From: a virus
Direction: 5' to 3' (one strand)
Length of the DNA: 27,092 nucleotides
Virus record (IMG/VR): IMGVR_UViG_3300010933_000065
Span: 1-27,092 of that record
Notes under the pieces: generated by a model
The model's input: the letters and a program-made list of their open reading frames with translations, nothing else
The model's database searches: none
What the model was told of the DNA's origin: nothing
Program-made: the position numbers and the translations under genes
Shown here: positions 3,355 through 19,926 of the stretch, piece by piece
How positions within the stretch are numbered: position 1 is the first letter of the stretch
Layout: every line of letters begins with the position of its first letter

Positions 3355-3364
3355 GAGATAGCAA

Positions 3365-4609
3365 ATGCAGGATCTCAACGACAAGGTTACGTCTGGCTCA
3401 CTAACCGCTGCCGAGTGGAATGAAGTACCGTCAGAGCTACAAAATATTATAACAGCGTGGGGTCAAGCTCTTTCTTCAGGTGATCTAGATCAACTTGCTA
3501 AGGGCGTTGCTGCTTACGCCGCTGCTAGCATGTTTTACACAGGTAGTGGACCGGCAAATGCTTATGTTGCTACTCCAATAACTGGAATTCAATCGCCTCC
3601 TAGTTATTTTGATGGAATGATAGTTAGGTTTAGAGTGCCTGCTGCTAATACTGGTGCGTCTACTGTAAATGTTAATGGTCTTGGTGTTAAGAGCATTTTT
3701 AGAGAGAATGGCGAAGCTCTTGCACCGAATGATCTAGTGCCCACTCGTGATACTTATCTTAGATACCATTCAGGACCAAATACATTTAGAGTTTCTAGAT
3801 GGTCTTCAGATGAATTTGTTGCTCTCCAGGGCAATCCTGCCAATCTAAAAATTGGACAACTAACTAGAACTAATATTGCAACTATTACGTTGAGCGCTGG
3901 CACTAATGACAATATCGTTATGACTATCAACGGTAAAATTCTTACTAGAGCTGCTGATCTAACTTTCAGTTTCACCGAGCTTGACACTGGAAGTGAACTC
4001 GCATCGACACCTTATTATATGTACATTAAGGATGTAGTTGGAGTCATGGTGGCAGTAGTTTCTGCTAGTGCGCCTATACTTCCTGGAGAAGCTGGAAGGG
4101 TTGGATACCATCCTACCCGCACAAATGAACTTTCTATCGGTGGATTCTGGAATGACGTCGGCTTTGACATTGTTCCTACAATTTGGACACCAGATGGTCA
4201 GGTTCTTTTCCTGAGGCATGATGCTGATCACGTACACGGTTTGACCGGAACAGCATTGACATCTTGGAGAACACAAGCTATCAATATCCCAGCTACAGCA
4301 ATTAGTACTATCATTAGTATGTCAGGTATTACTAGCGCAACTGGGAATGGAATGTTGATGGCCGCTCCAGATGGCGCTACTGGTGTTCTTGGAGCTGGCG
4401 TTGTAGATCCTGGCGCTGTTGGATTTGAACACACGCTACTTCACTCTGTTCATACTGGTTCAAATGACGGTAGTGGTGGCGACGTTCACGGTGAAATTCC
4501 AATTGTTACACCAGCAACTCCAGTTATTTCATACGGAACAACCAAGACTTATGCAAGCCTTAACATGATTGTACGTGGCTATCGTGATATTTTCTCCCCT
4601 AGGATCTGA
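3365..4609 (+). CDS. Tail fibre protein
   Basis: 414 residues, started at the ATG preceded by AGGAGATAGCAA. The N-terminal 110 residues carry a pattern common in phage and prophage fibres: MQDLNDKVTSGSLTAAEWNEV, then GSGPANAYVATP and NTGASTVNVNGLGVKSI. This part normally attaches the fibre to the baseplate. The rest is rich in short beta strands and small residues (IATITLSAGTNDNIVMTING, and IISMSGITSATGNGMLMAAP), typical of trimeric fibre shafts and tips. No separate chaperone gene follows; lysis genes start 6 nt downstream. The receptor cannot be predicted. Confidence 0.78.
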   Translation: MQDLNDKVTSGSLTAAEWNEVPSELQNIITAWGQALSSGDLDQLAKGVAAYAAASMFYTGSGPANAYVATPITGIQSPPSYFDGMIVRFRVPAANTGASTVNVNGLGVKSIFRENGEALAPNDLVPTRDTYLRYHSGPNTFRVSRWSSDEFVALQGNPANLKIGQLTRTNIATITLSAGTNDNIVMTINGKILTRAADLTFSFTELDTGSELASTPYYMYIKDVVGVMVAVVSASAPILPGEAGRVGYHPTRTNELSIGGFWNDVGFDIVPTIWTPDGQVLFLRHDADHVHGLTGTALTSWRTQAINIPATAISTIISMSGITSATGNGMLMAAPDGATGVLGAGVVDPGAVGFEHTLLHSVHTGSNDGSGGDVHGEIPIVTPATPVISYGTTKTYASLNMIVRGYRDIFSPRI

Positions 4610-4614
4610 GGATT

Positions 4615-4836
4615 ATGTACCAACAACTATTGGAACTTGTACCTGTTGTTGTACTTATCTCTGTTGCTTCTATGGCATGGAGGGGATCAAGAAAATTCAC
4701 AATCATTGAAGTAAAATTGGATCAAGCCGTAGAAAATACTGAAAAATGTGATGTGACTATAGACAAACTTGGACAACGTGTCGCATCAGTAGAAGGGCAA
4801 TTAGTAATAATGAATAAAAATGGGAGATCTCGATGA
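4615..4836 (+). CDS. Small membrane protein with coiled coil, lysis cassette
   Basis: 73 residues: one N-terminal membrane segment (about 4-22, LLELVPVVVLISVASMAW) followed by basic residues and a heptad-like helix (IEVKLDQAVENTEKCDVTIDKL). It starts 6 nt after the fibre stop behind GAGGATT and overlaps the endolysin start by 4 nt (ATGA type). The topology would place the helix in the cytoplasm or periplasm depending on insertion. It could be a holin accessory, an antiholin-like or XhlA-like protein, or unrelated. No family assignment is secure. Confidence 0.6.
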   Translation: MYQQLLELVPVVVLISVASMAWRGSRKFTIIEVKLDQAVENTEKCDVTIDKLGQRVASVEGQLVIMNKNGRSR

Positions 4837-5273
4837 GCAAATCATTCGATGATCTTGATCCTGCTACAGCGATGAGAGCCAGAGCTGTAGAAGCTGCTAT
4901 GGCAGCTTATGGGTATCCATTGAAAAGGATCAGAACATACGACAAGCTTAGTCGTCAGATGAAACTCTACAACCAGGGACGCACTACTCCTGGTAGAATC
5001 GTTACCAAAGTTAAGCGCGGTTGGCATAACCTCAGAAAAAACGGTAAGCCTAAGGCGAGAGCAATCGACTGGGCATTCAAGAAACAGAAACGTTTCCTTG
5101 GTCGCGACAACTGGAGTATGGATTGGCCTTGGGAGAGGCTAAGAAAAATTTGTGAAGCTTGCGATCTCAAGAAAACTTTGAAGTGGGATTATGGCCATTT
5201 TGTTGACACCAAAGGTGAAGAGAGCAAAGGCGAATCGTTCGCCGTTGCTTGGAGCAAGTCTGATAAAAACTAA
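4833..5273 (+). CDS. Endolysin, M15 family D,D/L,D-peptidase-like
   Basis: 146 residues with the zinc-peptidase pattern of family M15 (VanY / L-alanyl-D-glutamate peptidase endolysins). R41-QMKLYNQG is the usual substrate-side helix. H65 in GWHN and D79 in ARAIDW are the first two zinc ligands. D119 in KWDYGHF would be the general base and H122 the third ligand. The normal SxHxxGxAxD spacing is stretched here (H65 to D79), with a lysine/arginine-rich loop GKPKARAI between. The enzyme would cut peptide cross-links of the murein. There is no signal peptide, so a holin must release it. It overlaps the preceding membrane-protein gene by 4 nt, and a holin-like gene follows. Confidence 0.75.
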   Translation: MSKSFDDLDPATAMRARAVEAAMAAYGYPLKRIRTYDKLSRQMKLYNQGRTTPGRIVTKVKRGWHNLRKNGKPKARAIDWAFKKQKRFLGRDNWSMDWPWERLRKICEACDLKKTLKWDYGHFVDTKGEESKGESFAVAWSKSDKN

Positions 5274-5283
5274 GGAGCGCAAA

Positions 5284-5505
5284 ATGCTGGATCAAATATT
5301 CGGTGGAAAGCCGTGGTTCAAGAGCATGACAGGATGGGGAGCGTTGGTGCTCACGATGGCATGGACTTTGGTCCCCGGTCTTGCGGAGATGGGCGTTATC
5401 AGCCCTGAGACAACCGCAACTCTAACTGGAATGATGACCAAGGCTGGCTCTGTGCTTGGAATGCTCGGTATCCGTAAGGCAGCTACTACAGCGAACGTTA
5501 CGTAA
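5284..5505 (+). CDS. Holin candidate, small membrane protein
   Basis: The start at 5284 is chosen because AAGGAG lies 5 nt upstream; an upstream in-frame TTG would read inside the endolysin gene. The 73-residue product begins MLDQIFGGKPWFKSMTGWG, has one clear membrane segment (about 18-38, GALVLTMAWTLVPGLAEMGVI), a polar turn (SPETT), and a second, weaker glycine-rich helix (about 47-63). The layout 'KPWF.S...W..L', helix, turn, helix is frequent in small phage proteins placed next to endolysins and spanins. A pinholin or class II holin is the likeliest role, from position and topology only. Confidence 0.55.
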   Translation: MLDQIFGGKPWFKSMTGWGALVLTMAWTLVPGLAEMGVISPETTATLTGMMTKAGSVLGMLGIRKAATTANVT

Positions 5506-5726
5506 TGGGCGGAGGTGTAGCACTCGCCGCTCTCTTCAAGCTTGTTCTACCTATGTTCATGGGTATTATAATCTTGTGGAGAATTGTGAAAGCTGGATCC
5601 AACAAAGCAAAGAGAAAAATTGCCGAAACTGAGCTGGATGACAAGAGGGAGTTTGCCGAACGTGGTGAAGAATGGGATGGGCGTGGTGGCCTTGGCGGTA
5701 TTGTTCGCCGTAGGCTGCGCAAGTAG
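5505..5726 (+). CDS. i-spanin (Rz-like inner-membrane subunit)
   Basis: 73 residues: an N-terminal membrane anchor (about 5-26, VALAALFKLVLPMFMGIIIL) and then a highly charged helix (KRKIAETELDDKREFAERGEEW) that would extend across the periplasm. It ends in a short basic segment. The start overlaps the holin-candidate stop by 1 nt (TAATG). The call rests mainly on the overlapping lipoprotein gene in another frame, the genetic signature of i-/o-spanin pairs (lambda Rz/Rz1). It is shorter than most i-spanins. The stop is TAG. Confidence 0.65.
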   Translation: MGGGVALAALFKLVLPMFMGIIILWRIVKAGSNKAKRKIAETELDDKREFAERGEEWDGRGGLGGIVRRRLRK

Positions 5727-5907
5727 CAGCGGAAGCTGTGAGCGAGCAGCTTTCTGGGATAAGGAATGGAAACCTAAGGCTGAGTACGCTCAGGCTTTAT
5801 ACGATGCTTTTCATTACGCTGATAATGGGAAGCCACAGACGAATCCATATGTAGCTGAACGGCTAAACGATCTTGAGAAATTTTGCTATCAATTGAGGAT
5901 GAAGTAA
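5638..5907 (+). CDS. o-spanin lipoprotein (Rz1-like), overlapping the i-spanin gene
   Basis: It starts inside the i-spanin gene in the +1 frame and runs 181 nt past its stop. The product has a lipoprotein signal (GMGVVALAVLFAVGC, lipidated Cys at residue 27 of the 89-residue form) followed by SSSGSC. The lipobox has Ala rather than Leu at -3, which is a mild departure. The ATG at 5638 is preferred because it supplies Arg and Lys in the n-region. The ATG at 5677 has a better upstream GAAG but leaves only 13 uncharged residues before the Cys. The mature part is helical and charged (KEWKPKAEYAQALYDAF). Outer-membrane partner of the i-spanin, completing host envelope disruption. Confidence 0.68.
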   Translation: MTRGSLPNVVKNGMGVVALAVLFAVGCASSSGSCERAAFWDKEWKPKAEYAQALYDAFHYADNGKPQTNPYVAERLNDLEKFCYQLRMK

Positions 5908-6194
5908 TGGGAATCGCACTACATATTATCGCAGCAATGCTAATCGTGTTGGGCATTTCATTCAATGCTTTTATAGCAATCCCGCTGTTCGTTGTGCTTG
6001 GATTCTTCTGGGAGAAAACTCAGCATCGCTACGTATGGTCAATTCAAGATGGAAAACTTCATCGTGAAAAGACAGGTTTCTTTGGTTGGATTACAAAGCA
6101 CAGACTTCTTGAAGCTTCCGGCTGGCCTATTGGAGCAATCATCGCATCGGTTGCGTGGCTATTCATTCGGATGGCCTTAATTAACATCCTTTGA
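5907..6194 (+). CDS. Small membrane protein, last gene of the late operon
   Basis: 95 residues started at the ATG that overlaps the o-spanin stop by 1 nt (TAATG). The first 36 residues are almost entirely hydrophobic (ALHIIAAMLIVLGISFNAFI and on), long enough for one long or two short membrane helices. A soluble middle (HRYVWSIQDGKLHREKTG) follows, then a last membrane segment near 73-91. No family was recognised. It could be a second holin, an antiholin or a superinfection-exclusion protein; position alone does not decide. It ends in front of a hairpin-rich island where + and - transcription meet. Confidence 0.6.
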   Translation: MGIALHIIAAMLIVLGISFNAFIAIPLFVVLGFFWEKTQHRYVWSIQDGKLHREKTGFFGWITKHRLLEASGWPIGAIIASVAWLFIRMALINIL

Positions 6195-6350
6195 TGGCGC
6201 GCAGGTGCGAGCGCGTCAGCCAGTCCGGTCATGGATTGCGGCGGGTGGTTCATGGCCGGGCTCGGTCCGCTAGCGGGGATCCCGGATAGCTGGTCGGCCG
6301 TCGCTTCGCTACGCTTTAGCGGTTCGCCCCTATCGGATCTTATTAGAGTC
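6195..6350 (+). other. GC-rich, hairpin-dense island after the late genes
   Basis: No coding frame is seen. The first 110 bp are much richer in G+C than any neighbour. Hairpins seen by eye: GGCGCGC / GCGCGTC (about 6195-6217), CCGGTCATG / CATGGCCGG with a 17-nt loop (about 6226-6260), and the perfect palindrome CCGCTAGCGG (6267-6276). The imperfect pairs in the first two are G-U when read as + strand RNA and A-C when read as - strand RNA. This favours a structured + strand 3' end or small RNA over a - strand one. Confidence 0.45.
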
Positions 6351-6369
6351 TAGGTATCCGAAGTACCTA
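6351..6369. terminator. Possible weak terminator between convergent operons
   Basis: Perfect inverted repeat TAGGTA-TCCGAAG-TACCTA followed on the + strand by TTT. It lies between the last + strand gene and the stop of the polymerase gene on the - strand, where a terminator is expected. The stem is short and the U-tract poor, so the call is tentative. Confidence 0.3.
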
Positions 6370-6377
6370 TTTCCGAT

Positions 6378-9230
6378 CTAAGTCGGCCACATGCGATTGC
6401 TAGGCTTAGTGGAATTTGGACCCATTCCGTTCAACTTTCCCCATTGATTCAAGTTAAGAATCTGATCAATTTCTATTCTTCTCCATTTATCACGTATCCT
6501 ACCCTTTATCAAGTACCAATCCTCACCAACTTTTCCAGTTTCAGCGACCTCTCTACCGATAGATTCATATGAATAACGATTAACTGTAGCCACGATTGAG
6601 TCTGTATCATCTTCCATGATAAGATTCAGGAAAAGAGTGTGCTCTGTAATGTATCTTCCACCTCTACGCGCGACCGATTGAGTTTCATTGAGATCGCGAA
6701 TATTTCTATCCAACATTTTGCCTACAAACAGATAGCTTCCCGGCCCAGATATTGTTTCGATTGTGACCGGAGGTTCTTCCAATCCAAATTCTTTTGGATT
6801 ATTGAAAAATCCACCCCACCAATGTTCGCAAGGGAATAGAATTTCAAATGGACTATCTGGATTCATAAGAGTACGTACCATTGAAGGCTTGTAATCTTCT
6901 AGCCCTTCACGGCACTTCAATATTGCTTTCGCTTTCTTTGGGCCGATACCCTTCAGACTCAAGAGCCCGCCAAGTAATTTCCCATCTTGGATAGACCATA
7001 TTTCCACAGATGTATCTGGATCAAACGCCGTGTATTCTATCCCATCATTTTTGACTAGATCCCGGAGTATTTTGATTGTATGGTCTTCGCGTTTCGCGTT
7101 GTTAAGGTTAGCCAGTGCAAATTCCAAAGGATGATGAGCCTTCGCCCATGCAGTCCAATAAGAGATGCGACCATATCCATACGCGTGACTCTTGTTGAAG
7201 CCCCAAGAGCCAAAGGTAACCATTGATTGCCATACTTTGTCTGCTTCTTGCTCGTCAGCTCCATTTTCAATCGCTCCCGCAATAAATTTATCTTTATATT
7301 GGTTAAAAAATTCTTCACCCTTGCTCTTACTCATCGCTTTTCTTAAAGCTGCGACGTCAGACCAGCTGAGTTTACCGTATTCTCTACCGATACTCATTAG
7401 CTGCTCTTGGTAAATAATGACTCCATACGTTGCTTCGGTATGTTTAATAACACTAGGATGTTGAGAAATGTATTCAACGGGATCATCACCGGTCCTGCGA
7501 CTAATGAAAGTATTAGTCCCCCCACTATGAATAGGCCCCGGTCGCGCGAGGGCAGTAATCGCACATATATCGTCAAAATTCTGTACCCCCATTTGCCTAG
7601 TCACATATTGGAGCGCGTTACCTTGGAACTGAAATATTCCTGATAGCCTCAAGCTATTGAAGATATCAAACGTAGCCTTATCATCTAAAGGCAAATCATA
7701 ATAGTCGCTGTACGTCATACCGATCTGATCAGCTACTGATTCCAGAACTGATAGCGTTTTCAATCCGAGGCAGTCTATCTTGAGCAAATTTAGCTTTTCA
7801 GCATCACGATAATCCATCATCAAGACGCCATCTCTGGAATTGACTCCGCCATACTTAGTCAACTTATCATTACAGACGATAATCCCAGCCGCATGTAATC
7901 CTGAATGTCTAGCATGACCCTCAATCTTATACACGATGTCCATTTCTGGATACTTCTTGATAAATGCTTGACCTATCTCTGTGGTATCGAATGTATCCTG
8001 GACTCGCATCGTAGCACGAGCGTCACCACCACTTCTTTCAATGATGGCTAGCTTTACAGCTTCAGTTTCATACGCAGGTATTCCCAGCTCCTGAGCAAAT
8101 TCTCCGATCGAAGATTTTGGCTTCATAGTTGACACAGTTGCTATGTGGCTAACGTGATCCTCGCCATAAATATTCGTGAGACTCTTTATAACTATAGCGC
8201 GCTTCTTGTCAGGGAAATCAATATCAATGTCAGGCAAATCTTTCCTATTTACATCGACAAATCTCTCGAACAGTAGATCAAATCTGATAGGATCAACTTC
8301 TGCTATCTCAGTTAGGAAACATACTAACGATCCCGCAGATGATCCGCGCGATGGACCGACCAACATCTTACGCTTTGCTGTCCGTGTCATCTGAGCGACT
8401 ATCAGAAAATAGTCTGCAAAATTTTTGTCATTAATTAGCTTTAACTCACGATCCAATCGCTCACCGTATCTTGGATCGCTAAGATTAATTTTTCGTTTCC
8501 TAGCACCTGAGACGCAAAGTTCTCTCAACGTAATTTTACCTTTGTACTTAACCATATCAGCTACTGGTAAATCGTAGCGTTCGCATTGTTCCGCTATTCG
8601 ATGTGTATTTTTGACGGCTTCAGCATCTCCACGTAGCCTAATCCATTCTTCTTCAGACATAATATGCTGTGGAAACGTTTGTGCTTCCATCTTTCTGCGT
8701 CCGGCGTGTAGCTGGTATACTTCCCTGTCATCTGGGCTCGGATACCAATTTTTACAGATGGCTACTTTCGGTATCCCAGGCCATTTTGCTATCACGTCTG
8801 GTGTAGTTTGGTCTATCCCGATGTAATCAATCCTATCTGTCATGTTGAACGTTGGAGCTATGACTATTATGTTATCACTGATCTGTCTGAGATTCGATTG
8901 AAACAATCTAGGATGATAATAGAACTGATCGTGCGCAACTTTGACTACTTGATACAATTCGCTTAGCCCATCTTGGTTTTTCGCTATGAATATGTAGACT
9001 GGACCAAACAACTTAGTTTTTTCGATAGGCTTATCAATAACCATAAGCCTGACGCCGAGAATTGCCTTCACACCCTCATCTTTACACTCTTTGTGGTGGC
9101 GCAAATGAGCGAACGTGTTGCTATCATCCGCTACACCTATCGTAAAGCCATTGCTATGGTGTACGATATCCTTAGTGAAGCCGTAGCACTTCTTAAAGCT
9201 GAATTCAGTTCTGAGGGCGAGGTGAATCAC
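6378..9230 (-). CDS. dnaE: DNA polymerase III alpha subunit (C-family, DnaE-like)
   Basis: 950 residues. The polymerase core is intact: VGPSRGSSAGSLV (about 291-303), catalytic PDIDIDF (333-339, Asp334 and Asp336), the third Asp486 in LLKIDCLGL, IYQEQLM (606-612), and GFNKSHAYGYGRISYWTAW (677-695). A helix-hairpin-helix reads LSLKGIGPKKAKAIL (758-772) and a C-terminal OB-like domain spans about 825-930. It is about 200 residues shorter than E. coli DnaE and lacks an obvious tau-binding tail. The N-terminal PHP domain has lost its metal ligands: the usual HxHS is LALRTEFS and TDH is ADD, so it should not proofread by itself. A DnaQ-type exonuclease is encoded just upstream. Start is GTG with GGAGG 5 nt before it. 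It is the last gene of the operon. Confidence 0.93.
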   Translation of the reverse strand: MIHLALRTEFSFKKCYGFTKDIVHHSNGFTIGVADDSNTFAHLRHHKECKDEGVKAILGVRLMVIDKPIEKTKLFGPVYIFIAKNQDGLSELYQVVKVAHDQFYYHPRLFQSNLRQISDNIIVIAPTFNMTDRIDYIGIDQTTPDVIAKWPGIPKVAICKNWYPSPDDREVYQLHAGRRKMEAQTFPQHIMSEEEWIRLRGDAEAVKNTHRIAEQCERYDLPVADMVKYKGKITLRELCVSGARKRKINLSDPRYGERLDRELKLINDKNFADYFLIVAQMTRTAKRKMLVGPSRGSSAGSLVCFLTEIAEVDPIRFDLLFERFVDVNRKDLPDIDIDFPDKKRAIVIKSLTNIYGEDHVSHIATVSTMKPKSSIGEFAQELGIPAYETEAVKLAIIERSGGDARATMRVQDTFDTTEIGQAFIKKYPEMDIVYKIEGHARHSGLHAAGIIVCNDKLTKYGGVNSRDGVLMMDYRDAEKLNLLKIDCLGLKTLSVLESVADQIGMTYSDYYDLPLDDKATFDIFNSLRLSGIFQFQGNALQYVTRQMGVQNFDDICAITALARPGPIHSGGTNTFISRRTGDDPVEYISQHPSVIKHTEATYGVIIYQEQLMSIGREYGKLSWSDVAALRKAMSKSKGEEFFNQYKDKFIAGAIENGADEQEADKVWQSMVTFGSWGFNKSHAYGYGRISYWTAWAKAHHPLEFALANLNNAKREDHTIKILRDLVKNDGIEYTAFDPDTSVEIWSIQDGKLLGGLLSLKGIGPKKAKAILKCREGLEDYKPSMVRTLMNPDSPFEILFPCEHWWGGFFNNPKEFGLEEPPVTIETISGPGSYLFVGKMLDRNIRDLNETQSVARRGGRYITEHTLFLNLIMEDDTDSIVATVNRYSYESIGREVAETGKVGEDWYLIKGRIRDKWRRIEIDQILNLNQWGKLNGMGPNSTKPSNRMWPT

Positions 9231-9321
9231 TCGGCCTCCATCTACACAGAGTGCAAAATGCGGCTAAATACCACAAGATTTGACCGCATCCATGACATCT
9301 TACCCAGCGAGTCTCTTTCAT
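9205..9321 (-). CDS. Tiny zinc-ribbon protein between dnaQ and dnaE
   Basis: A 38-residue frame that fits exactly between the exonuclease and the polymerase. Its ATG overlaps the exonuclease stop (ATGA) and its end overlaps the polymerase start by 26 nt. It reads MKETRWVRCHGCGQILWY.., with C9-x2-C12 and C23-x2-C26, a zinc-ribbon knuckle pair. The coupled start and the four regularly spaced cysteines argue that it is real. Partner unknown; polymerase or exonuclease binding is a guess from position. Confidence 0.6.
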   Translation of the reverse strand: MKETRWVRCHGCGQILWYLAAFCTLCRWRPSDSPRPQN

Positions 9322-9875
9322 ATCAAGCCTTTTGTCTCCAGCCATTGATAGCAACTGATCGTAGCTAGAACATCAGACTTTGCTCTGTGAGCATTGTCAT
9401 GATGATGCCCAGTAGCTAGCATGTGTAAATCCTTCAACGATAACCTTCTGTGTTGTATGGACATTGATTTTTCAATTGTACACGTCCAAGTTGGCGACCA
9501 AGGAAAGTGAAACTCCAGTCTGTGCCTAGCCAACTCTGCCCAGAGAATCCCAAGGTCAAATGATACGTTATGTCCCACAGTAACTCGCTCACCAATGAAC
9601 AGATTCACTAGGTCATCGTATACTTCGATGAACTTGGGGGCGTCAGCTACCATCTCATTAGTGATACCAATGATCTTGATAACCTCATCTGGTATCGGAA
9701 CAGGCGGCTTAACAAGCGTGTTGACATCATCTATGAATCCAAGCTTGTCGGTTAGCTTGACCGCGTAAATTTCTGTAATGAATGGTTGTAGATTGAGAGA
9801 TGCCGCATCAGGCTTCAGCAATCCTGTAGTTTCAGTATCTATAAAGATCAATTCATACTCCAGTTTTTGCTTCAA
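9318..9875 (-). CDS. dnaQ: DnaQ-like 3'-5' exonuclease (DEDDh, epsilon-like)
   Basis: 185 residues with all five catalytic positions: D13 and E15 in FIDTETTG, D107 in GHNVSFDLGIL, H163 and D168 in AHRAKSDVLAT. The HxAxxDVxAT ending defines the DEDDh class of proofreading exonucleases. The gene is translationally linked to the tiny zinc ribbon and the DnaE-type polymerase, whose own PHP domain looks inactive, so this protein most likely supplies proofreading in trans. A recognisable clamp-binding motif was not seen. It overlaps the DUF6378-like gene by 23 nt. Confidence 0.9.
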   Translation of the reverse strand: MKQKLEYELIFIDTETTGLLKPDAASLNLQPFITEIYAVKLTDKLGFIDDVNTLVKPPVPIPDEVIKIIGITNEMVADAPKFIEVYDDLVNLFIGERVTVGHNVSFDLGILWAELARHRLEFHFPWSPTWTCTIEKSMSIQHRRLSLKDLHMLATGHHHDNAHRAKSDVLATISCYQWLETKGLI

Positions 9876-10149
9876 GGATTGCTGCGTAGACTTCCAAATC
9901 TCTCACTGAATCTAGGTGTCCACCCTTCTCAAAATTGACACAGTATCTCTCAATCTTTATCACACAGAGTTGCACGCTAGCGTACCTGCTAAAATCTTCA
10001 GCAGTTTCCAACTTAACACCGTTTGGGAACAGAGATTTCATTGTGTTACCGATATTTTTCCATATATCTCCATACACAGAGTTCCGTTCAGTGAAAAGTT
10101 CGGACGCTTTAACTAAAAGATCAGCAGGATGTTTCACTATATCTCCCAA
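9853..10149 (-). CDS. DUF6378-like phage protein (MazG-like helical fold suspected)
   Basis: 98 residues with the pattern ASELFTERNSVYGDIWKNIG (about 12-31), then a hydrophobic helix with LCVIKIERYC and the closing GGHLDSVRDLEVYAAILEAK. A 'YGD..xN...' start and 'KI.R....GH.DS..D...Y' end are seen in small phage proteins annotated DUF6378, which share helices and acidic residues with MazG-type nucleotide pyrophosphohydrolases. Enzymatic activity is not established. It overlaps the VOC gene by 13 nt and the exonuclease by 23 nt. Confidence 0.6.
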   Translation of the reverse strand: MGDIVKHPADLLVKASELFTERNSVYGDIWKNIGNTMKSLFPNGVKLETAEDFSRYASVQLCVIKIERYCVNFEKGGHLDSVRDLEVYAAILEAKTGV

Positions 10150-10643
10150 GGTCCGTGATAAAGTCGCTGAATGAACTTGATATTGTATCCGAATAGGTGA
10201 CGTGTATCAATAATAGCTTCACGGAATCTTTTTACGCCAGCCAACGCTACATTTGTATGATTGAAAGTATCAAATTGGTGTATGATGTTAAAGCCAAAAG
10301 TTTCGCTATAATGCTCAGCCATTTCATCAGCATTATTTACGTGAGCACCCATGTGAGATATCACTGGGACAATTATATCGGACAAATTAACATCTTCATA
10401 GTAGCGATGACTTTCTGAATTGTACGTGAGTATTTCCAACTCCAATCCATTGCCCAGGAAATCATAGCAAAAACTCATTTCTGATTCTATTCTGTTATCA
10501 TCCTTGTCAACTAGCAAAGGCGTATCATGTAACCAATTTGTGTATCCAAGCATTACAAGGGATTGTACAGCCTTCTTGTGATCTGGACAATACATCGCTA
10601 CTTGATGAAACTCAGGGAATTTCAAATGTGTACTTTTTGTCAT
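10137..10643 (-). CDS. VOC superfamily protein (glyoxalase/dioxygenase fold)
   Basis: 168 residues with two beta-alpha-beta-beta-beta-like halves. The first half starts FHQVAMYCPDHKKAVQSLVMLGY (about 11-33) and ends GNGLELEILTY. The second starts SHMGAHVNNADEMAEHYSETFGF. The repeat of 'H-hydrophobic-x(7-10)-helix-LG(Y/F)' is the VOC signature. His12, Glu74 and His101 sit where metal ligands are usual, but the final strand reads YNIKFIQ without the expected Glu, so the metal site may be incomplete. The family covers glyoxalases, epimerases, dioxygenases and antibiotic-binding proteins; substrate cannot be told. Rare in a phage nucleotide operon. Confidence 0.65.
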   Translation of the reverse strand: MTKSTHLKFPEFHQVAMYCPDHKKAVQSLVMLGYTNWLHDTPLLVDKDDNRIESEMSFCYDFLGNGLELEILTYNSESHRYYEDVNLSDIIVPVISHMGAHVNNADEMAEHYSETFGFNIIHQFDTFNHTNVALAGVKRFREAIIDTRHLFGYNIKFIQRLYHGPWEI

Positions 10644-11311
10644 AGCCTACCTCCAGCAAAATCAATCACTGATCCTGTTAGGTATGGACTCATTTCCATG
10701 ACATGACATATGAACTTAGCAACTTCAAATTGAGTTGTTCTACGATTCATAGGAATAAGTTTCAGCTCATATTCCATAGCTTCTTCTTTAGTCAATCCGC
10801 ACATAGCTTGAATCGCTTCATCGCAATCTTCAGTCATAGGAGTCCCATCAACTATGTGAGGTGAAACTCCAACCACTGACCAATCAGGAGCTAATTCTCT
10901 AGCGCAGCATTTCACTGCCATTTTTAGAGCAGCTTTGCTTGAGCAATAACCTATTGAATGTCTCATTGGAATGTCAGCCGCAGTGCTAACTACACAAACC
11001 ATCTTACCACCATTTTGATTTTGAGTCAGTACAGTCATAGTATTGATAAAGCCAATGACATTAACGTTAAACTCAGAAGCTAAATCCATTTGAGATAAAG
11101 ATGGTATATTGGCGAGACGTTTGATACCAGCACAGTAAATTACAATATCAAATGGTGCATTTGTAATAATAAATTCTCCCAATTTTGGTTTACTACATAC
11201 ATCAACTTCTTCGCCAGTTGTCACAACTTGGTAATAACCATTATGTATTATGAAATCTGATAATGCTTTGCCAATGCCAGTCAAGCCACCTATAACCCAT
11301 ACGTTAGGCAT
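10640..11311 (-). CDS. Short-chain dehydrogenase/reductase (SDR)
   Basis: 223 residues with the classical SDR layout: nucleotide-binding GGLTGIG (8-14), YCAGI (59-63, in place of NNAG), Asn84 in NVNVIG, Ser109 in VVSTAA, and the catalytic Y122-x3-K126 (GYCSSKAAL). The C-terminal TGSVIDFAGGR is also typical. All catalytic residues are present, so an NAD(P)H-dependent carbonyl or hydroxyl redox activity is likely. The substrate is unknown. SDRs make modified sugars or pterins, among others. It overlaps the VOC gene by 4 nt and the HAD gene by 8 nt, which ties it to the nucleotide genes. Confidence 0.82.
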   Translation of the reverse strand: MPNVWVIGGLTGIGKALSDFIIHNGYYQVVTTGEEVDVCSKPKLGEFIITNAPFDIVIYCAGIKRLANIPSLSQMDLASEFNVNVIGFINTMTVLTQNQNGGKMVCVVSTAADIPMRHSIGYCSSKAALKMAVKCCARELAPDWSVVGVSPHIVDGTPMTEDCDEAIQAMCGLTKEEAMEYELKLIPMNRRTTQFEVAKFICHVMEMSPYLTGSVIDFAGGRL

Positions 11312-11723
11312 TTCTTGCTCCCCTTCTTAATACTACCATTTTGAAATGCTCATCGACTCTTCTCGTCAAAAGTGGGCCCATTTCAGCCCAATTAACATAC
11401 GACCTGATGCGCTCACTTCTGTGAATTAGTGGCGTTCCAAGAGCAGCGTCATCTACATAGCAATGAGCGTGAGCCTTGCTAGATGATGACCAAGAATGTT
11501 GATCTGGATTCTTGTTTACGCCCCAAAAATGCAGCCCCTTATCGCTACAAAATTTTACAGCATTTTCCAGTGGCTTGTAGGTACGCACCGTCCACAAGAT
11601 ATATCTCAATCCAGGATACTTTTCTTGTAGCGGTATGACCCATTCAAATGCGCCGATATCTTCACCAAGATCAGGCCACATATGAGTTGTTAGAGTACCA
11701 TCGAAGTCCAGTGCGACTATCAT
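11304..11723 (-). CDS. HAD-family phosphatase
   Basis: 139 residues. Motif I is D6-F-D8-G-T-L-T at the extreme N-terminus, motif II T45 in ILWTVR, motif III/IV K83 followed by D91-D92 in HCYVDDAALG. This compact, uncapped type of HAD hydrolase is common in phages and bacteria and usually removes phosphate from small phosphorylated metabolites or nucleotides. Its neighbours (deoxyribosyltransferase-like, SDR, VOC) suggest a phosphorylated nucleoside or sugar substrate, but that is inference. Confidence 0.75.
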   Translation of the reverse strand: MIVALDFDGTLTTHMWPDLGEDIGAFEWVIPLQEKYPGLRYILWTVRTYKPLENAVKFCSDKGLHFWGVNKNPDQHSWSSSSKAHAHCYVDDAALGTPLIHRSERIRSYVNWAEMGPLLTRRVDEHFKMVVLRRGARNA

Positions 11724-12205
11724 TCTATATCACCCTCGTCTAGATGCTTAGGTAAACTTGTGCCTTCCTTAATTGCTTTGAACGTGCTGTTGAAATCATA
11801 CTCGTGAGAAATATGCGTGTCTACACACTCACGTAACATTACATTTAAACCTTTACCTTCAAAACTCATCGAGACTATAGTGTACTCAGCTTTAAAATTT
11901 TCGTATGGTAAGGTTATATACGTCTTATGTGCTGCCGCATATCCGAGTTCAAATATAGTTCCAGTATCTTTCTCATCAAGAACAGCTAAAAGAACAGTGC
12001 AACCTCTAATATTATCTACGTTTGAGTTGTAGATTTTCTTAGAAGCTTCACGCTTTTCTTCTATCGTCATACTTTGTAGCGTTCCGAATGATCTAGGTGA
12101 GAAAAAATCTATGCCGAGATCACCAAGCATCTTTTCAATCCATTCAACTTTCGCTAATTGAATTGGAGTGAAAAATGGGCTTGCTATGTAGACTTTCGTG
12201 TACAC
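11720..12205 (-). CDS. Nucleoside 2-deoxyribosyltransferase-like protein
   Basis: 161 residues. The N-terminal VYIASPFF (5-12), the N63/I66 helix (SNVDNIRGCTVLLAVLD), and D80-TGTIFELGYAAAH with the candidate nucleophile Glu86 match the deoxyribosyltransferase / DUF4406-like fold. Such enzymes swap or hydrolyse the base of (deoxy)nucleosides or nucleotides, with a glutamate as nucleophile. The protein could exchange a normal base for an altered one or break down host nucleotides. It overlaps the HAD gene by 4 nt and directly follows the ThyX-like gene. Confidence 0.72.
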   Translation of the reverse strand: MYTKVYIASPFFTPIQLAKVEWIEKMLGDLGIDFFSPRSFGTLQSMTIEEKREASKKIYNSNVDNIRGCTVLLAVLDEKDTGTIFELGYAAAHKTYITLPYENFKAEYTIVSMSFEGKGLNVMLRECVDTHISHEYDFNSTFKAIKEGTSLPKHLDEGDIE

Positions 12206-13303
12206 TTATTTAGTCTCCAATTTTTCAATTTTGTGGATCCATTCATGAATTCTATTCTCATCTATTATGGTTTTTGACATCTCACCGATTTGCAAAATAG
12301 TTGGATTTGTATGAGTCAAAGCAAAATATTCAGGACAAGGCGATCCAGGATCAACGTCCGTTAATCTCAGCTTAGCATCTGCTTCATAAGGACAGCTACC
12401 ATTTGAACATGGTAGTGTTACTGGAGAGTTCAACTCTGATGATACCATTTTAACTAGCGGTGCCCAAAGACCTTGATGTGCCATCCAACAACTTCGCTTA
12501 GATAGTACATGATCCCAGTCTACGTCTGTACCAGAGACTTCTATGTTAATTTTATCACGCAAAGCTAGAATAGCCAAGTCTTTATCCAAGCAAAACTTAC
12601 GAAGCTCATCTAGTATGTTCAAATTCCTGTGTCTAACTATGTGAGTCCGTAGTGAAAATGGAACACGCGCCTGATAAGAGATGATTGAGTTTGCCCTGCG
12701 TACAGTACCGTCAATAAAGTTTGACGGAGTAGGCAGCAAGTCATCTTCTTTGCAGTTGTCATGCACAACGCCCATCTTATCTAGAATATCAAACGTAACT
12801 CCAGCAGCTTCTGCGAACATTATTGCAATATTGAAATCATTGCAAGCCATATGCAATCTTTCAAATTCATGATGAAGTTTATGTAGAGATCGCATGCTGA
12901 ACCTTGCCATGTAGTGAGTCTCATGGACTAGAGGTAGCATGAGGCGGAATTTATCCTGTGAAATTCCAGCCTGCTTAGACATACGCATTTTAGATTGTAT
13001 ATCTAGATAGTAATGATTATATTTTCGGAAAAATCTAGGCACAGTGAATTTAGTCACGTCATCAACACGAGAAGTTCTTGCCCAAATGACATGATCTCGC
13101 ATCGTAGTGATTATTTCACGTTCAATAGCTGTAGATTTTACTTGGACAACGACGCTAGGTATCTCATTTATAGAAGCGTCAAGTTGTAGTAAGTTTTTGT
13201 GGGCCAGAAGATCATCAGGCCTAGAATATTCCCAAGCAATATTGGAAAGATGGTTACCAGATAGCTCGCCAGTCCAACTTTTCGCAATAACATACATGTC
13301 CAT
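12206..13303 (-). CDS. Divergent ThyX-like protein (flavin-dependent thymidylate synthase superfamily)
   Basis: 365 residues, longer than typical ThyX (about 220-300). Residues 110-150 (YLDIQSKMRMSKQAGISQDKF, RLMLPLVHETHYMARFSMRSLHKL) match the ThyX stretch 'Y..L...G...e.aR.vLP....T......n.RsL..f..'. The segment before it (about 49-92, VVVQVKSTAIEREIITTMRDHVIWAR) sits where the RHRxxSxNxxSxR motif should be but has lost it. A second, later copy (about 215-245, ARVPFSLRTHIVRHRNLNI) keeps RHR but not the Ser/Asn that follow. So the protein looks like two ThyX-like halves, both altered. The C-terminal part has Cys residues (CSNGSCPY, GSPCPEY) that may bind metal. Thymidylate synthesis is doubtful; a different pyrimidine-modifying or structural role is possible. 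Confidence 0.55.
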   Translation of the reverse strand: MDMYVIAKSWTGELSGNHLSNIAWEYSRPDDLLAHKNLLQLDASINEIPSVVVQVKSTAIEREIITTMRDHVIWARTSRVDDVTKFTVPRFFRKYNHYYLDIQSKMRMSKQAGISQDKFRLMLPLVHETHYMARFSMRSLHKLHHEFERLHMACNDFNIAIMFAEAAGVTFDILDKMGVVHDNCKEDDLLPTPSNFIDGTVRRANSIISYQARVPFSLRTHIVRHRNLNILDELRKFCLDKDLAILALRDKINIEVSGTDVDWDHVLSKRSCWMAHQGLWAPLVKMVSSELNSPVTLPCSNGSCPYEADAKLRLTDVDPGSPCPEYFALTHTNPTILQIGEMSKTIIDENRIHEWIHKIEKLETK

Positions 13304-13908
13304 TATTGTTTTGCCTCTATTTCAACAAGCAATGCGTTGAGATCCTGACGCATTCTTAGAAGTTCATTTTTCCCTTCATCTGTGTGGAGAACTTTGTATA
13401 GAGAGTCAACTCTTTCAAACGTAATTTTGCGTGTAGGCCCAACATGAGCAGCGATACTATCATTACTGAACTCTACAGACTCTTGCCAAACTTTATTAAC
13501 AACGGCGATGATATCAGCTAAAGCAACAACAGCACCTTCCCTTCCAGTTTTTGCCCATTCCCAATGCTTAAGCATCTTTGGCAAGCCTAAATCTGTGGAT
13601 ATGCTAGTCATAGCATCATGAGATAGTTTTTTCAACGATTTTGTTATTTCACTGCTATAATATTTAGTTGGCATAGGTATGTCGCCGGTGATAATTTCAT
13701 CAACATCGTGAACCATAGCCTTCATTACAGCCAGCCCGGTATCTAACTCTTCACCTAGCTGATTCAATCTTTCACAGATAACATAGCAAATAAGCCCATT
13801 AAATCCAGTGTGCTCCATAACCGATTCTGGATTCAATAGGCGTGTTTGTGAGTATCGCTGAACCGCGCTAAGCGTCCTTGCTACTTTTAACGTTTTGATC
13901 ATTTCCAC
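13303..13908 (-). CDS. HD-domain phosphohydrolase (YfbR-like 5'-deoxynucleotidase)
   Basis: 201 residues. H33 in ESVMEHTGFNG, H67-D68 in MKAMVHDVDEIITGDIPMPTKY, and D132 in VALADIIAVVNK give the H..HD..D metal set of the YfbR/YGK1 branch; the 'DE.(I/L)TGD(I/L)P.P.KY' string is diagnostic for it. These enzymes remove phosphate from dNMPs, and a phage relative (DatZ) clears dATP in phages with 2-aminoadenine DNA. No PurZ gene is in the window, so that pathway is not indicated. Start is GTG at 13908, or ATG at 13902 two codons later. The stop shares one base with the ThyX-like start. Confidence 0.75.
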   Translation of the reverse strand: MEMIKTLKVARTLSAVQRYSQTRLLNPESVMEHTGFNGLICYVICERLNQLGEELDTGLAVMKAMVHDVDEIITGDIPMPTKYYSSEITKSLKKLSHDAMTSISTDLGLPKMLKHWEWAKTGREGAVVALADIIAVVNKVWQESVEFSNDSIAAHVGPTRKITFERVDSLYKVLHTDEGKNELLRMRQDLNALLVEIEAKQ

Positions 13909-13911
13909 TCA

Positions 13912-15000
13912 TCATTCTTCACTCTTATTGCGCCACATAGTAGCTATTGGATGAAATGGTTTGCCTGCTTCGGTCAGATTTGCATACTTCACGTTCACAA
14001 ATTTACCGATATATTTCGCTTTATTTTCAAGAGCATCAAATTTTTCTTCAAAATCTCCAGGAGCTGTAACCTTGAACCTAATTCCACTGTGCATAACGCA
14101 TACTAAAACGCCATACCCATCCTTAGATTCAAGTACATCTACAACTTTGAATTCATGGTCCTCCCACCTCTTGATCTTGACAAGTCCCTTGGATCTCTTG
14201 CCATCTTCATACGCAAAACCATCTCTACGCAATATCAAACCTTCATATCCATCTTCGATTGATCTGTGTAGCATGCGCGAAATATTTTTTTCATCAAAAT
14301 TCAAATCGGTGGGGGCATAATATACAGGATGTCTTAAACATAGTCCAGATATTATCGCCAACCTAGCAGTGTAGTACAATTTTTCCTCTGTGATAACATC
14401 ATATACGATGTAGAGCAGTTTTTTGGTATTCTCTTGTCTACGTTTGACCCATGACGTTATCATTTGAAGCGGAACTCCATGACTATACAGCTCTCCATCT
14501 AGAGTGTCGCCTGGCTGAAGTTCAGAGCATTTAACTTCATACATTATCTCTGGAATTGTATCTATGATTTTACCATTGCGAGAATACGCAGTATAGGAAT
14601 CGCCATCATAATGAATTAGACAGCGGTGGCCATCGTATTTACACTGCATCATAGAGTTTTTGTAGTCGATGCCCTTGACTTTTTTGAACGGAGTCGCAAG
14701 CATTGGCTTGAGCAAACCTAGTTTGTTCACAGGCTTGCTACTCATAGCGCGCAATCTATCTGTGATGTATCCTTGGTCGAGCTTTTTGTTAATACGCGAC
14801 TGGACTCTGGATATTATCTGATCATCGAGCGACCTGCCAGCTAGGCCATCTTCAATCAGCTCTTCTTGAGATTGCTGGAGCCCGCCATAATCGCCCCAGG
14901 AAATAAATATTGTATCACCCTCGTGGTATATGCTCCAAACTTGGAGTTTGCAAGAAGCATCCTGACGGTACAGGAAAGTTACGTCAATTTTTACTTCCAT
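13912..15000 (-). CDS. ATP-dependent DNA ligase with N-terminal WGR-like domain
   Basis: 362 residues. The adenylation domain has motif I K121-YDGHR, motif Ia YSRNG (139-143), motif III DGELYS (168-173), motif IV EGLILRR (253-259) and motif V LVKIKRW (273-279), followed by an OB domain. Residues about 18-78 (KLQVWSIYHEGDTIFISWGDYGG, ending KKLDQGY) read like a WGR domain, known for binding DNA ends and nucleic acid breaks in PARPs and some ligases. The protein seals nicks during phage replication and recombination. It shares one base with the zinc-ribbon gene before it. Confidence 0.88.
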   Translation of the reverse strand: MEVKIDVTFLYRQDASCKLQVWSIYHEGDTIFISWGDYGGLQQSQEELIEDGLAGRSLDDQIISRVQSRINKKLDQGYITDRLRAMSSKPVNKLGLLKPMLATPFKKVKGIDYKNSMMQCKYDGHRCLIHYDGDSYTAYSRNGKIIDTIPEIMYEVKCSELQPGDTLDGELYSHGVPLQMITSWVKRRQENTKKLLYIVYDVITEEKLYYTARLAIISGLCLRHPVYYAPTDLNFDEKNISRMLHRSIEDGYEGLILRRDGFAYEDGKRSKGLVKIKRWEDHEFKVVDVLESKDGYGVLVCVMHSGIRFKVTAPGDFEEKFDALENKAKYIGKFVNVKYANLTEAGKPFHPIATMWRNKSEE

Positions 15001-18040: not shown

Positions 18041-18523
18041 CTACAGATACTCGATTCCACCACCACACAAGTGACAAGTATATTTCCAGGTGCGATTCAA
18101 GCGTCTACGCCCGGTATACTCGTGGGTGCAATCTATGCATACGGCTACTACGAATGCCTTTTTACGCTTAAGGTGCTCGTAAGGATGGTATATATCTGGC
18201 TTGATCCCAAATATCTTACACCATCGTGCCCACTCCCAACCATGGGCGCGGACATCTTGAGCGAAACAATGCGCCAGCTCGTGAAGGAACGTATTATAGA
18301 TCGCATCCCAAGCGTTCCCTGGAGTTAGCCAAAGCCTACTAGCCAATCTAATGATATGCGTTCCATCGTTATACCTTGTAGCAGTACCTGCCTTACGCTT
18401 GTACTTAGCCTTGACCACTTCAGTTATTCCAAGTTCAGGCCTTTTTGAAATTGCTACGAGCGCACCATCCATGTCGTAGCCTCGCCGTCGCAGCTCGGAT
18501 ATCATTTCATTGACTGTCATCAA
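18041..18523 (-). CDS. SprT-like zinc metalloprotease-fold protein
   Basis: 160 residues. H81-ELAH85 is the zinc HExxH motif and H94 in AHGWEWARWC is in place for the third ligand (usual H-G-x-x-F/W spacing). A C-terminal zinc ribbon has C129-x2-C132 and C150-x2-C153 (CHLCGG). This is the SprT / Spartan layout; Spartan cuts DNA-protein cross-links, while bacterial SprT roles are unclear. In a phage it may remove host proteins from DNA or act on host factors; inference. Starts MMTV; the second ATG is equally possible, and no strong ribosome-binding site precedes either. Confidence 0.78.
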   Translation of the reverse strand: MMTVNEMISELRRRGYDMDGALVAISKRPELGITEVVKAKYKRKAGTATRYNDGTHIIRLASRLWLTPGNAWDAIYNTFLHELAHCFAQDVRAHGWEWARWCKIFGIKPDIYHPYEHLKRKKAFVVAVCIDCTHEYTGRRRLNRTWKYTCHLCGGGIEYL

Positions 18524-19278: not shown

Positions 19279-19926
19279 CTAGCCAGCTTGGACGCTACGT
19301 ACCACGCCCAGGATGCGCTTGTAGAAGCGCGCCTGACTCGCCTTCTTGCCTTGCTCCTTGACCCAGGCATCGAACTCAGCATCCGTGGATCCAGGATTGG
19401 CCGTCACCCATGCCAGGAACTTGGTACGGAAGCCAGTGCGAGCACCTCCACCACCGCCGGTTCCCTTGGGCTTTGTCGGCAGCTCGATCTTCTGCTCTGC
19501 GGCGAACTTCTTCAGAGTCGCCAGAGCCTGCTTCTCGTCGGTGGCATCCAGCTCCTGAGCCAGATACTCGCAGATCTTTGTGACTTCGTTCCAATCCTTC
19601 GGAGCGAAGTCAACCTTGAGAAGCAGCTCGCTCGCCTGTTCGAGACGATCTTTGGAACTCATGCGAATTCCCAGATCTTCCAGAACTCTACGAAGCAGCC
19701 GTCCAGCTTTCTTGAACGGAAAGCCTCCCTGCTGAATCAGCGTGATTGCCATTTCATCCTCGCTCTTGCCAGCCTTGGCAAGCGGCTCGATGATCTCACG
19801 CGCCTTGGCCATTTCGAGCTGAAGCTGACTCGGCTCCGCTGCCACAGCAGGCTCCGCTTCCTGATTGCCAATAGTGACAATCATTCCAGCTGCCTTGGAA
19901 TACTTGCGGGTTTTTCTTGTGGACAT
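19279..19926 (-). CDS. Hypothetical protein, 215 residues, basic C-terminal domain
   Basis: Starts at ATG behind CAAGGGGTTAAGACAAA. The N-terminus is basic (MSTRKTRKYSK). A central helical domain (about 38-145) contains DEMAITLIQQGGFPFKKAGR and LLRRVLEDLGIRMSSKDRLE. A glycine-rich hinge (TGGGGGAR) leads to a C-terminal helical domain (FRTKFLAWVTANPGSTDAEF). Basic, helix-rich and two-domain: DNA binding is plausible but no motif proves it. G+C-rich like its neighbour. The stop is TAG. Confidence 0.65.
   Translation of the reverse strand: MSTRKTRKYSKAAGMIVTIGNQEAEPAVAAEPSQLQLEMAKAREIIEPLAKAGKSEDEMAITLIQQGGFPFKKAGRLLRRVLEDLGIRMSSKDRLEQASELLLKVDFAPKDWNEVTKICEYLAQELDATDEKQALATLKKFAAEQKIELPTKPKGTGGGGGARTGFRTKFLAWVTANPGSTDAEFDAWVKEQGKKASQARFYKRILGVVRSVQAG

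What the first reader, a model, noticed from the sequence alone, without database searches (positions are those of the whole stretch)
9853..13908. Unusual metabolic cluster: candidate nucleotide-remodelling or DNA-base-modification pathway
HD deoxynucleotidase, ThyX-like, deoxyribosyltransferase-like, HAD phosphatase, SDR, VOC and DUF6378-like genes are fused into one overlapping run between DNA ligase and polymerase/exonuclease. Phage pathways for altered bases (e.g. Z-genome DatZ/MazZ, hydroxymethyl- and deazapurine systems) combine a pool-cleaning phosphohydrolase with base-altering enzymes. Here the base-altering candidates (ThyX-like, SDR, VOC) do not match any pathway I know, so a new modified nucleotide is possible.
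Basis: inference. Interest (0 to 1): 0.75.

Follow-up and report, generated by a model that had tools for sequence, protein, structure and literature searches.

The report
Phage operon for side-chain-modified thymine
This virus of bacteria carries a conserved set of enzymes that also occurs in the few phages known to replace thymine in their DNA with a uracil bearing a long, sugar-decorated side chain, and the genes suggest that the five-carbon side chain is cut from a deoxyribose sugar and joined to the base by a remodelled thymidylate synthase, a pathway unsolved for about 50 years.

Summary
The run of genes is real: ligase, HD nucleotidase, ThyX-like, nucleoside deoxyribosyltransferase (NDT), HAD phosphatase, SDR, VOC, MazG-like (DUF6378), exonuclease, Pol III alpha. 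The ThyX-like protein is not an ordinary thymidylate synthase. It belongs to a separate phage family (here ThyXL: ThyX fold in residues 1-189, a second ThyX-like half, RHR signature and R174 lost). The family includes gp130 of Bacillus phage SP-15, whose DNA contains 5-(4',5'-dihydroxypentyl)uracil, and a protein of Yersinia phage YerA41, whose thymidine carries a ~1-kDa modification. In nine isolated phages with ThyXL, NDT is present in 9/9 and the HD enzyme in 8/9. Four thymine-hypermodified phages of the hydroxymethyl route have neither ThyXL nor NDT. The order HD-ThyXL-NDT-(HAD)-MazG-exonuclease-Pol III holds in environmental phages down to 24% identity. Best explanation: NDT releases 2-deoxyribose (or its 5-phosphate), and ThyXL couples that C5 aldehyde to C5 of dUMP by flavin-dependent reductive alkylation; the other enzymes clean pools and trim the side chain. 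The Z-genome reading is not supported. The class of product is known; the proposed genes and route are new within the library searched. No chemistry was tested, and the window is a fragment.

The parts
13303..13908 (-). HD-domain nucleotidase, YfbR/DatZ-like (201 aa): pool cleaning, presumably dephosphorylates dTMP/dNMP or dNTP
   Evidence: PF12917 E 3.6e-19; phrog_7076 E 7e-21; R18, H33, H67-D68, E71, D76, K82, D132 invariant in 10/10 relatives; E. coli YfbR structure 2paq E 5.5e-9
12206..13303 (-). ThyXL: divergent two-part ThyX homologue (365 aa), proposed dUMP C5-alkylating enzyme
   Evidence: Profile matches only ThyX above chance in PDB; AF2 residues 1-189 align to ThyX at Z 10.8, residues 192-365 to ThyX at Z 6.6; orthologues in SP-15, YerA41 and others; separate clade with support 98/97
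11720..12205 (-). NDT: nucleoside 2'-deoxyribosyltransferase family (161 aa), proposed source of 2-deoxyribose(-5-phosphate)
   Evidence: PF05014 E 1.6e-17; D80, G82, E86, N121, M123 invariant in 11/11 phage relatives; solved NDTs 6evs, 6qai
11304..11723 (-). HAD phosphatase (139 aa), proposed to remove a side-chain or nucleotide phosphate
   Evidence: NF046079 BT0820 family E 1.4e-21, below its cut-off; 2obb E 4e-13; a HAD gene follows NDT in 13 of the 15 contigs long enough to show it, window included
10640..11311 (-). SDR oxidoreductase (223 aa), proposed side-chain reduction/tailoring
   Evidence: PF00106 E 1.6e-21; phrog_3142; SDR homologue SP15_129 lies between NDT and ThyXL in SP-15
10137..10643 (-). 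VOC/glyoxalase-fold protein (168 aa), accessory, role unknown
   Evidence: PF13669 E 6e-4; relatives in 50 phage records, mainly Wifcevirus and Serratia/Xanthomonas/Pantoea phages
9853..10149 (-). DUF6378, MazG-like NTP pyrophosphohydrolase (98 aa): pool cleaning
   Evidence: PF19905 E 0.005; phrog_4889 E 1e-13; homologue in the same position in all 15 contigs that reach it, window included
13912..15000 (-). ATP-dependent DNA ligase (upstream neighbour)
   Evidence: PF01068 E 5e-22; phrog_114 E 2e-63
9318..9875 (-). DEDDh 3'-5' exonuclease, Pol III epsilon-like
   Evidence: PF00929 E 3e-22; phrog_192 E 2e-37; conserved in position
6378..9230 (-). DNA polymerase III alpha-like replicase, presumed to incorporate the modified dNTP
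   Evidence: phrog_405 E 6e-227; conserved in position

Best explanation
The operon makes a 5-substituted deoxyuridine nucleotide that replaces part of the thymine in the phage DNA (an SP-15/YerA41-type thymine hypermodification). Proposed mechanism. (1) The MazG-like protein and the HD nucleotidase break down competing dNTP/dNMP (dTTP/dTMP likely) to nucleosides. (2) NDT splits the glycosidic bond and yields 2-deoxyribose or its 5-phosphate, a C5 aldehyde in its open form. (3) ThyXL binds dUMP and reduced flavin; the aldehyde carbon, not methylene-folate, forms the flavin N5 adduct, is attacked by C5 of dUMP and is reduced, giving 5-(polyhydroxypentyl)-dUMP. (4) HAD removes a phosphate; SDR/VOC (an O-methyltransferase in the sister phage) trim the side chain; in SP-15 the 3'-oxygen is lost, leaving 4',5'-dihydroxypentyl. 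(5) The nucleotide is phosphorylated, incorporated by the phage polymerase and decorated further. Shown here: gene content, homology, conserved linkage, co-occurrence with NDT, changed ThyX active site, kinship with phages of known T modification. Inferred: every chemical step and all substrate choices. My confidence is about 0.75 that this phage modifies thymine, about 0.5 for the pentose-derived side chain, and about 0.45 for NDT and ThyXL as the enzymes that make it.
For: ThyXL relatives lie in SP-15 (gp130) and YerA41; the window sits in a supported clade with YerA41 (96/94) and SP-15 is in the other main clade of the family, so both known T-hypermodified phages bracket it. SP-15 carries NDT (gene 127), SDR (129) and ThyXL (130) together, and HD (090). 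NDT is in 9/9 and HD in 8/9 isolated phages with ThyXL; by tblastn the association among 50,697 phage records has Fisher p 7e-30 (NDT) and 7e-34 (HD), and 3e-23 / 3e-25 after removing near-copies. Controls: phiW-14, SPO1, M6, Vi01 all carry the ThyA-type enzyme and no PF05014; none matched the ThyXL profile, although the same profile rings in the nine phages. SP-15 also has an ordinary ThyX (gp9), and LIS04 and Carin-5 a ThyA, so ThyXL is not needed for dTMP there. Residues matching dUMP-binding S88, R90 and R147 are kept (T/S77, R79, R/K120), while R174 and Y91 equivalents are lost and W74 is invariant (mapping by motif). ThyX can use free formaldehyde through a flavin carbinolamine (PMC8316439). 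[quoted passage not shown] title only). dUMP-supplying genes (dUTPase, dCTP deaminase) occur in the ThyXL phages Va2, YerA41, Carin-5.
Against: No biochemistry or base analysis exists for this phage, which is a 27-kb fragment. No glycosyltransferase was found in the window. YerA41's modification has not been solved; its 346 m/z fragment equals the neutral mass of trihydroxypentyl-dU (346.14) but was measured in positive mode, where [M+H]+ would be 347.14. The NDT keeps residues typical of nucleoside transferases, so it may shuffle bases rather than feed ThyXL. HAD-MazG-SDR-VOC occurs with an ordinary ThyX and no NDT in Wifcevirus, so those genes may serve another purpose. Va2 has NDT and ThyXL but no YfbR-type HD. 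The 1978 labelling paper could not be read.
Confidence: 0.5

Rival explanations
1. ThyXL is a 5-hydroxymethyl-dUMP synthase (the 2018 proposal for SP-15 gp130); the longer side chain is built later on DNA or nucleotide, and NDT/HD only control pools.
For: Proposed for gp130 in PMC5977210; other T-hypermodified phages start from 5-hydroxymethyl-dU; HD and MazG fit dTTP removal as described for phiW-14.
Against: All four hmdU-route controls use a ThyA-type enzyme and lack NDT. NDT is present in 9/9 ThyXL phages, which this model does not explain. DHPU has a five-carbon chain joined directly by carbon, with ribose label reported (title only).
Confidence: 0.22
2. Ordinary nucleotide salvage: ThyXL makes dTMP, and HD, NDT, MazG and HAD recycle host nucleotides to raise phage DNA yield; the DNA is canonical.
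For: Each family has salvage members; large phages often carry such genes; the window is a fragment in which no decorating enzyme was found.
Against: ThyX signature and R174 lost in all members; a second, ordinary thymidylate synthase exists in SP-15, LIS04 and Carin-5; tight linkage to NDT; SP-15 and YerA41 DNA are hypermodified at T.
Confidence: 0.2
3. A purine-replacement pathway such as Z-DNA: HD acts as DatZ, MazG-like as MazZ, NDT as the Z-phage enzyme DmtZ.
For: phrog_7076 (dATP triphosphohydrolase) is the best HD hit; an NDT-family enzyme (DmtZ) works in Z phages (PMC12884076).
Against: No PurZ/adenylosuccinate synthetase in any of nine ThyXL phages; YerA41 DNA shows normal dA and the known change in SP-15 and YerA41 is at thymine.
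Confidence: 0.04

Closest known systems
Bacillus phage SP-15 5-(4',5'-dihydroxypentyl)uracil (DHPU) system
   Same: ThyXL (gp130), NDT (gp127), SDR (gp129) and HD (gp90) homologues; thymine is the altered base; nucleotide made before DNA synthesis (PMC5977210).
   Different: NDT is a double-length protein; HD is not adjacent; NAD ligase and Pol A instead of ATP ligase and Pol III alpha; glucuronate/glucose genes known in SP-15 are not seen in the window fragment; the window adds VOC.
Yersinia phage YerA41 thymidine modification (~1 kDa, structure unsolved)
   Same: Nearest ThyXL relative with known DNA chemistry (27-30% identity); NDT nearby, HD elsewhere in the genome, two SDR genes, dUTPase.
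   Different: Genes scattered; many glycosyltransferase-type genes; different replication module.
Canonical flavin-dependent thymidylate synthase ThyX
   Same: Fold of residues 1-189; probable dUMP-binding S/T, R and R/K positions kept.
   Different: No RHRxxSxNExSxRY signature, R174 and Y91 equivalents lost, invariant W74, extra C-terminal ThyX-like half, 365 aa, separate clade.
5-hydroxymethyl-dU routes (SPO1, phiW-14, M6, Vi01)
   Same: Thymine hypermodification with pool-cleaning enzymes.
   Different: ThyA-type hydroxymethylase present and NDT absent in all four; no match to the ThyXL profile.
DmtZ/Z-DNA nucleotide enzymes
   Same: NDT-family enzyme in a phage base-replacement pathway; HD and MazG-type pool cleaners.
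   Different: No PurZ in relatives; thymine, not adenine, is altered in relatives.

Membership tests
Canonical ThyX | Thy1 fold | tested here: met
   Residues 1-189 align to ThyX chains at Z up to 10.8 (6j61; 3.9 A over 148 residues); the 47 best entries are all ThyX/PolB, next unrelated 6.2
Canonical ThyX | RHRxxSxNExSxRY signature | tested here: not met
   Position replaced by R-x6-R-x4-WAx[ST]xR in ThyXL sequences
Canonical ThyX | R174 that activates dUMP (and Y91) | tested here: not met
   R174 equivalent is F/L/Y/I/C/A, Y91 equivalent V/N/T; mapping by motif alignment to T. maritima ThyX
Canonical ThyX | Methylation of dUMP with FAD and CH2-H4folate | not testable with these tools
   Needs purified enzyme
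SP-15-type pentyl-uracil module (defined here) | ThyXL of the gp130 clade | tested here: met
SP-15-type pentyl-uracil module (defined here) | NDT-family gene | tested here: met
   Window 11720-12205; 9/9 isolated ThyXL phages
SP-15-type pentyl-uracil module (defined here) | YfbR-type HD gene | tested here: met
   Window 13303-13908; 8/9 phages
SP-15-type pentyl-uracil module (defined here) | Polyhydroxypentyl side chain on uracil in virion DNA | not testable with these tools
   Needs nucleoside LC-MS/NMR
SP-15-type pentyl-uracil module (defined here) | Glycosyl/decorating enzymes | tested here: inconclusive
   None found among window genes scanned, but the window is a fragment; sister phage L001 has a TylF O-methyltransferase in the operon
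5-hydroxymethyl-dU route | ThyA-type (PF00303) dUMP hydroxymethylase | tested here: not met
   Absent in 7/9 ThyXL phages, present in 4/4 controls; no such gene among the window proteins scanned
Z-DNA pathway | PurZ | tested here: not met
   0/9 relatives while the control rings in 14/14 genomes; the window's own full genome is not available
NDT family (PF05014) | Profile match and catalytic Asp/Glu | tested here: met
   E 1.6e-17; D80 and E86 invariant in 11/11
NDT family (PF05014) | Substrate class (nucleoside transferase vs dNMP hydrolase) | tested here: inconclusive
   N121-x-M123 kept in 11/11 and shared with solved transferase 6qai; leans to nucleosides, not proof
YfbR/DatZ HD nucleotidases | HD metal site and profile match | tested here: met

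The most novel reading that the evidence does not exclude
A new enzyme chemistry: a folate-independent ThyX descendant that forms a carbon-carbon bond between a pentose aldehyde supplied by a nucleoside-cleaving enzyme and C5 of dUMP, so that phages build an unusual base partly out of recycled deoxyribose; the window phage and its environmental relatives would carry polyhydroxypentyl-uracil DNA, possibly with a side chain not yet described.
Probability: 0.4. Interest if true: 0.88.

Novelty: new variant of a known kind. Interest (0 to 1): 0.72.

Why it matters
The structure of SP-15's dihydroxypentyl-uracil has been known since 1972-73 (structure papers cited in PMC5977210), but its biosynthetic genes were never established; the published guess found here calls gp130 a hydroxymethyl-dUMP synthase and does not mention the deoxyribosyltransferase. 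The co-occurrence found here gives a concrete, testable set (ThyXL + NDT + HD, then HAD/SDR) and extends it to Vibrio, Xanthomonas, Cobetia, Streptococcus and many environmental phages whose DNA can be predicted to be thymine-modified. If right, it adds a new C-C bond-forming reaction to flavin enzymes, helps explain why such DNA resists sequencing and restriction, and gives a sequence marker for hidden hypermodified phages.

Tried and rejected
Near-identity search of the window among isolated phages: no match. Z-DNA reading: rejected on missing PurZ in all nine relatives. Internal tandem duplication of ThyXL: sequence profiles of the two halves do not match (E 0.15), although the C-terminal half alone aligns best to ThyX structures (Z 6.6, 3.4 A over 107 residues), so duplication is likely but unproven. 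SDR and VOC as core base-altering enzymes: SDR is found in 3 of 16 environmental contigs and 4 of 9 isolates, VOC only in the window among ThyXL contigs. ThyXL relatives in bacterial genomes: none with the two patterns used. YerA41 346 m/z fragment as proof of a trihydroxypentyl chain: arithmetic fits the neutral mass only, so kept as a hint. The 1978 SP-15 biosynthesis papers are not held. hhalign of ThyXL against a small set of phage ThyX gave only the RSL region (P 3e-4). Papers linking ThyX or NDT to thymine hypermodification: none found in the held library beyond the gp130 guess.
Full report
WHAT IS THERE. The window is a 27-kb virus record of a contractile-tailed phage: baseplate genes on the plus strand, replication genes on the minus strand. 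From ligase to exonuclease the genes overlap by up to 23 bases or lie at most 3 bases apart. VOC and DUF6378 score below the Pfam cut-offs on their own but have clear relatives.

THE THYX-LIKE PROTEIN IS A SEPARATE FAMILY (ThyXL). It scores only E 0.004 with Pfam Thy1. A tblastn of 50,697 phage records found five relatives, among them Yersinia phages YerA41 and GN1 and Xanthomonas phage phiXF1. With the Vibrio member as query, SP-15 gp130, Streptococcus phage GXN1 and Cobetia phage Carin-5 join, and gp130 as query finds the same set. A profile of ten members hits ThyX structures (best E 2.5e-5) and nothing else of note in the PDB. An AlphaFold2 model of the window protein (pLDDT 62, pTM 0.60; modest, five sequences) has residues 1-189 in the ThyX fold: the 47 best structure matches are all ThyX or its relative PolB (Z up to 10.8), and the next unrelated chain has Z 6.2. 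Among viral models the second-best match is SP-15 gp130 (E 9e-10). The C-terminal half folded alone also aligns best to ThyX (Z 6.6), suggesting a two-domain pseudo-dimer; direct profile comparison of the halves does not show it. Across 19 members W24, S27, R28, P29, R62, W74, R79, R138, R270, W280 and R313 are invariant. By motif alignment the dUMP-binding S88, R90 and R147 of ThyX are kept as T/S77, R79 and R/K120, but the RHR signature, Y91 and the dUMP-activating R174 are not. In a maximum-likelihood tree 18 ThyXL members form one supported side (98/97) apart from five ordinary phage ThyX; LIS04_124 has a long branch and an uncertain place.

COMPANY IT KEEPS. Whole-record searches of nine isolated ThyXL phages: NDT (PF05014) 9/9, YfbR-type HD 8/9, SDR 4/9, PurZ 0/9, ThyA 2/9, an additional ordinary ThyX in SP-15 (gp9). 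The ThyXL and NDT genes are adjacent or within about 3.5 kb in all but Carin-5. In SP-15 the order is NDT (127), SDR (129), ThyXL (130). Fifteen further environmental contigs, some near-copies, down to 24% identity in ThyXL, keep HD > ThyXL > NDT > [HAD] > [SDR] > MazG-like > exonuclease > Pol III alpha as far as each contig reaches; HAD is missing in L001 and L014, SDR is present only in the window, L001 and L013, and L001 has a TylF-type O-methyltransferase instead of VOC. Among all phage records, tblastn hits to the window's NDT number ten, eight of them in ThyXL phages; for HD 24 and ten; Fisher p 7e-30 and 7e-34, or 3e-23 and 3e-25 after removing near-copies. Four classic T-hypermodified phages of the hydroxymethyl route (phiW-14, SPO1, M6, Vi01) have a ThyA-type enzyme but no NDT, and none matched the ThyXL profile.

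KNOWN CHEMISTRY OF RELATIVES. SP-15 DNA has over half of its thymine replaced by 5-(4',5'-dihydroxypentyl)uracil carrying glucose and phosphoglucuronate; the DHPU nucleotide is made before DNA synthesis (PMC5977210). That paper guesses that gp130 is a hydroxymethyluridylate synthase and does not mention the deoxyribosyltransferase. [quoted passage not shown] I could not read that paper. YerA41 DNA carries a ~1 kDa substitution on thymidine with a common 346 m/z fragment read by its authors as thymidine plus a 104-Da spacer (PMC9023294). The neutral mass of 5-(3',4',5'-trihydroxypentyl)-dU, the direct product of reductive coupling of dU with 2-deoxyribose, is 346.14; in positive mode it should appear at 347.14, whereas an amino analogue would give 346.16. 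This is a hint, not evidence.

MECHANISM PROPOSED. ThyX moves a one-carbon unit as a flavin N5 adduct and can take it directly from the aldehyde formaldehyde (PMC8316439). 2-Deoxyribose is a five-carbon aldehyde in its open form; NDT-family enzymes release or transfer deoxyribose, and a phage NDT (DmtZ) that hydrolyses dAMP is known (PMC12884076). The simplest pathway that uses all conserved genes is: MazG-like and HD enzymes clear thymidine nucleotides; NDT supplies deoxyribose or its 5-phosphate; ThyXL joins its C1 to C5 of dUMP and reduces it; HAD removes a phosphate; SDR and others tailor the chain. SP-15's loss of the 3'-oxygen would need a dehydration and a reduction, for which its adjacent SDR is a candidate. 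All of these steps are inference.

LIMITS. The window is a fragment; whether this phage has decorating enzymes, an ordinary thymidylate synthase or RNR cannot be said. Residue mapping to ThyX rests on motif alignment and a modest model. SDR, VOC, HAD and MazG also form a Pol III-linked block with an ordinary ThyX in Wifcevirus phages without NDT or HD in the stretch examined, so their roles may be independent of the proposed pathway.

VERDICT. Observation confirmed. Interpretation partly supported: very probably a thymine-modification operon of the SP-15/YerA41 kind, not a Z-like pathway and not without precedent; the proposed genes and chemistry for the side chain are new as far as the held library shows and directly testable.

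Noticed in passing
L041 (Escherichia phage Mansfield, Wifcevirus) 3342-10049: Same tail of the operon with an ordinary ThyX: ThyX, HAD(PNKP-type)-MazG fusion, SDR, VOC, Pol III epsilon, Pol III alpha, after a UDP-galactopyranose mutase; VOC and SDR relatives occur in many of the same phages. Cultured BASEL relatives (Bas98, Bas100) exist.
   Followed up: partly
L003 15380-15916 (YerA41_086): Annotated as mannosyltransferase but matches nucleoside deoxyribosyltransferase PF05014 (E 5e-15); probably misannotated.
   Followed up: yes
L010 19505-20620 (Listeria phage LIS04_124): Annotated ThyX; shares most ThyXL invariant residues (W24, S27-R28-P29, R62, W74, R79, R138, R270, W280, R313) but lacks much of the middle; a divergent member or intermediate.
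   Followed up: partly
L023 863-1654 (phiXF1_55): Weak Thy1 match (E 8e-5) in a second, unannotated protein of phiXF1; not obviously an ordinary ThyX.
   Followed up: no
L043 and L042 (Mycobacterium phage Hawkeye, Gordonia phage GretelLyn): FabG-like SDR beside Pol III alpha with an NT5C-type nucleotidase and a ThyX-like gene further on; may be another variant of the SDR block.
   Followed up: partly
window 18041-18523 (-): SprT-like domain protein (PF10263 E 4e-8) among the replication-strand genes.
   Followed up: no
window 19288-20654 (+) against 19279-19926 (-): Locally GC-rich stretch (0.51) with long overlapping open frames on both strands; true coding strand unclear.
   Followed up: no
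L007 11486-11773 (Vibrio phage 1.031.O): An acyl-carrier-protein-like gene sits between NDT and MazG in the Vibrio version of the operon.
   Followed up: no
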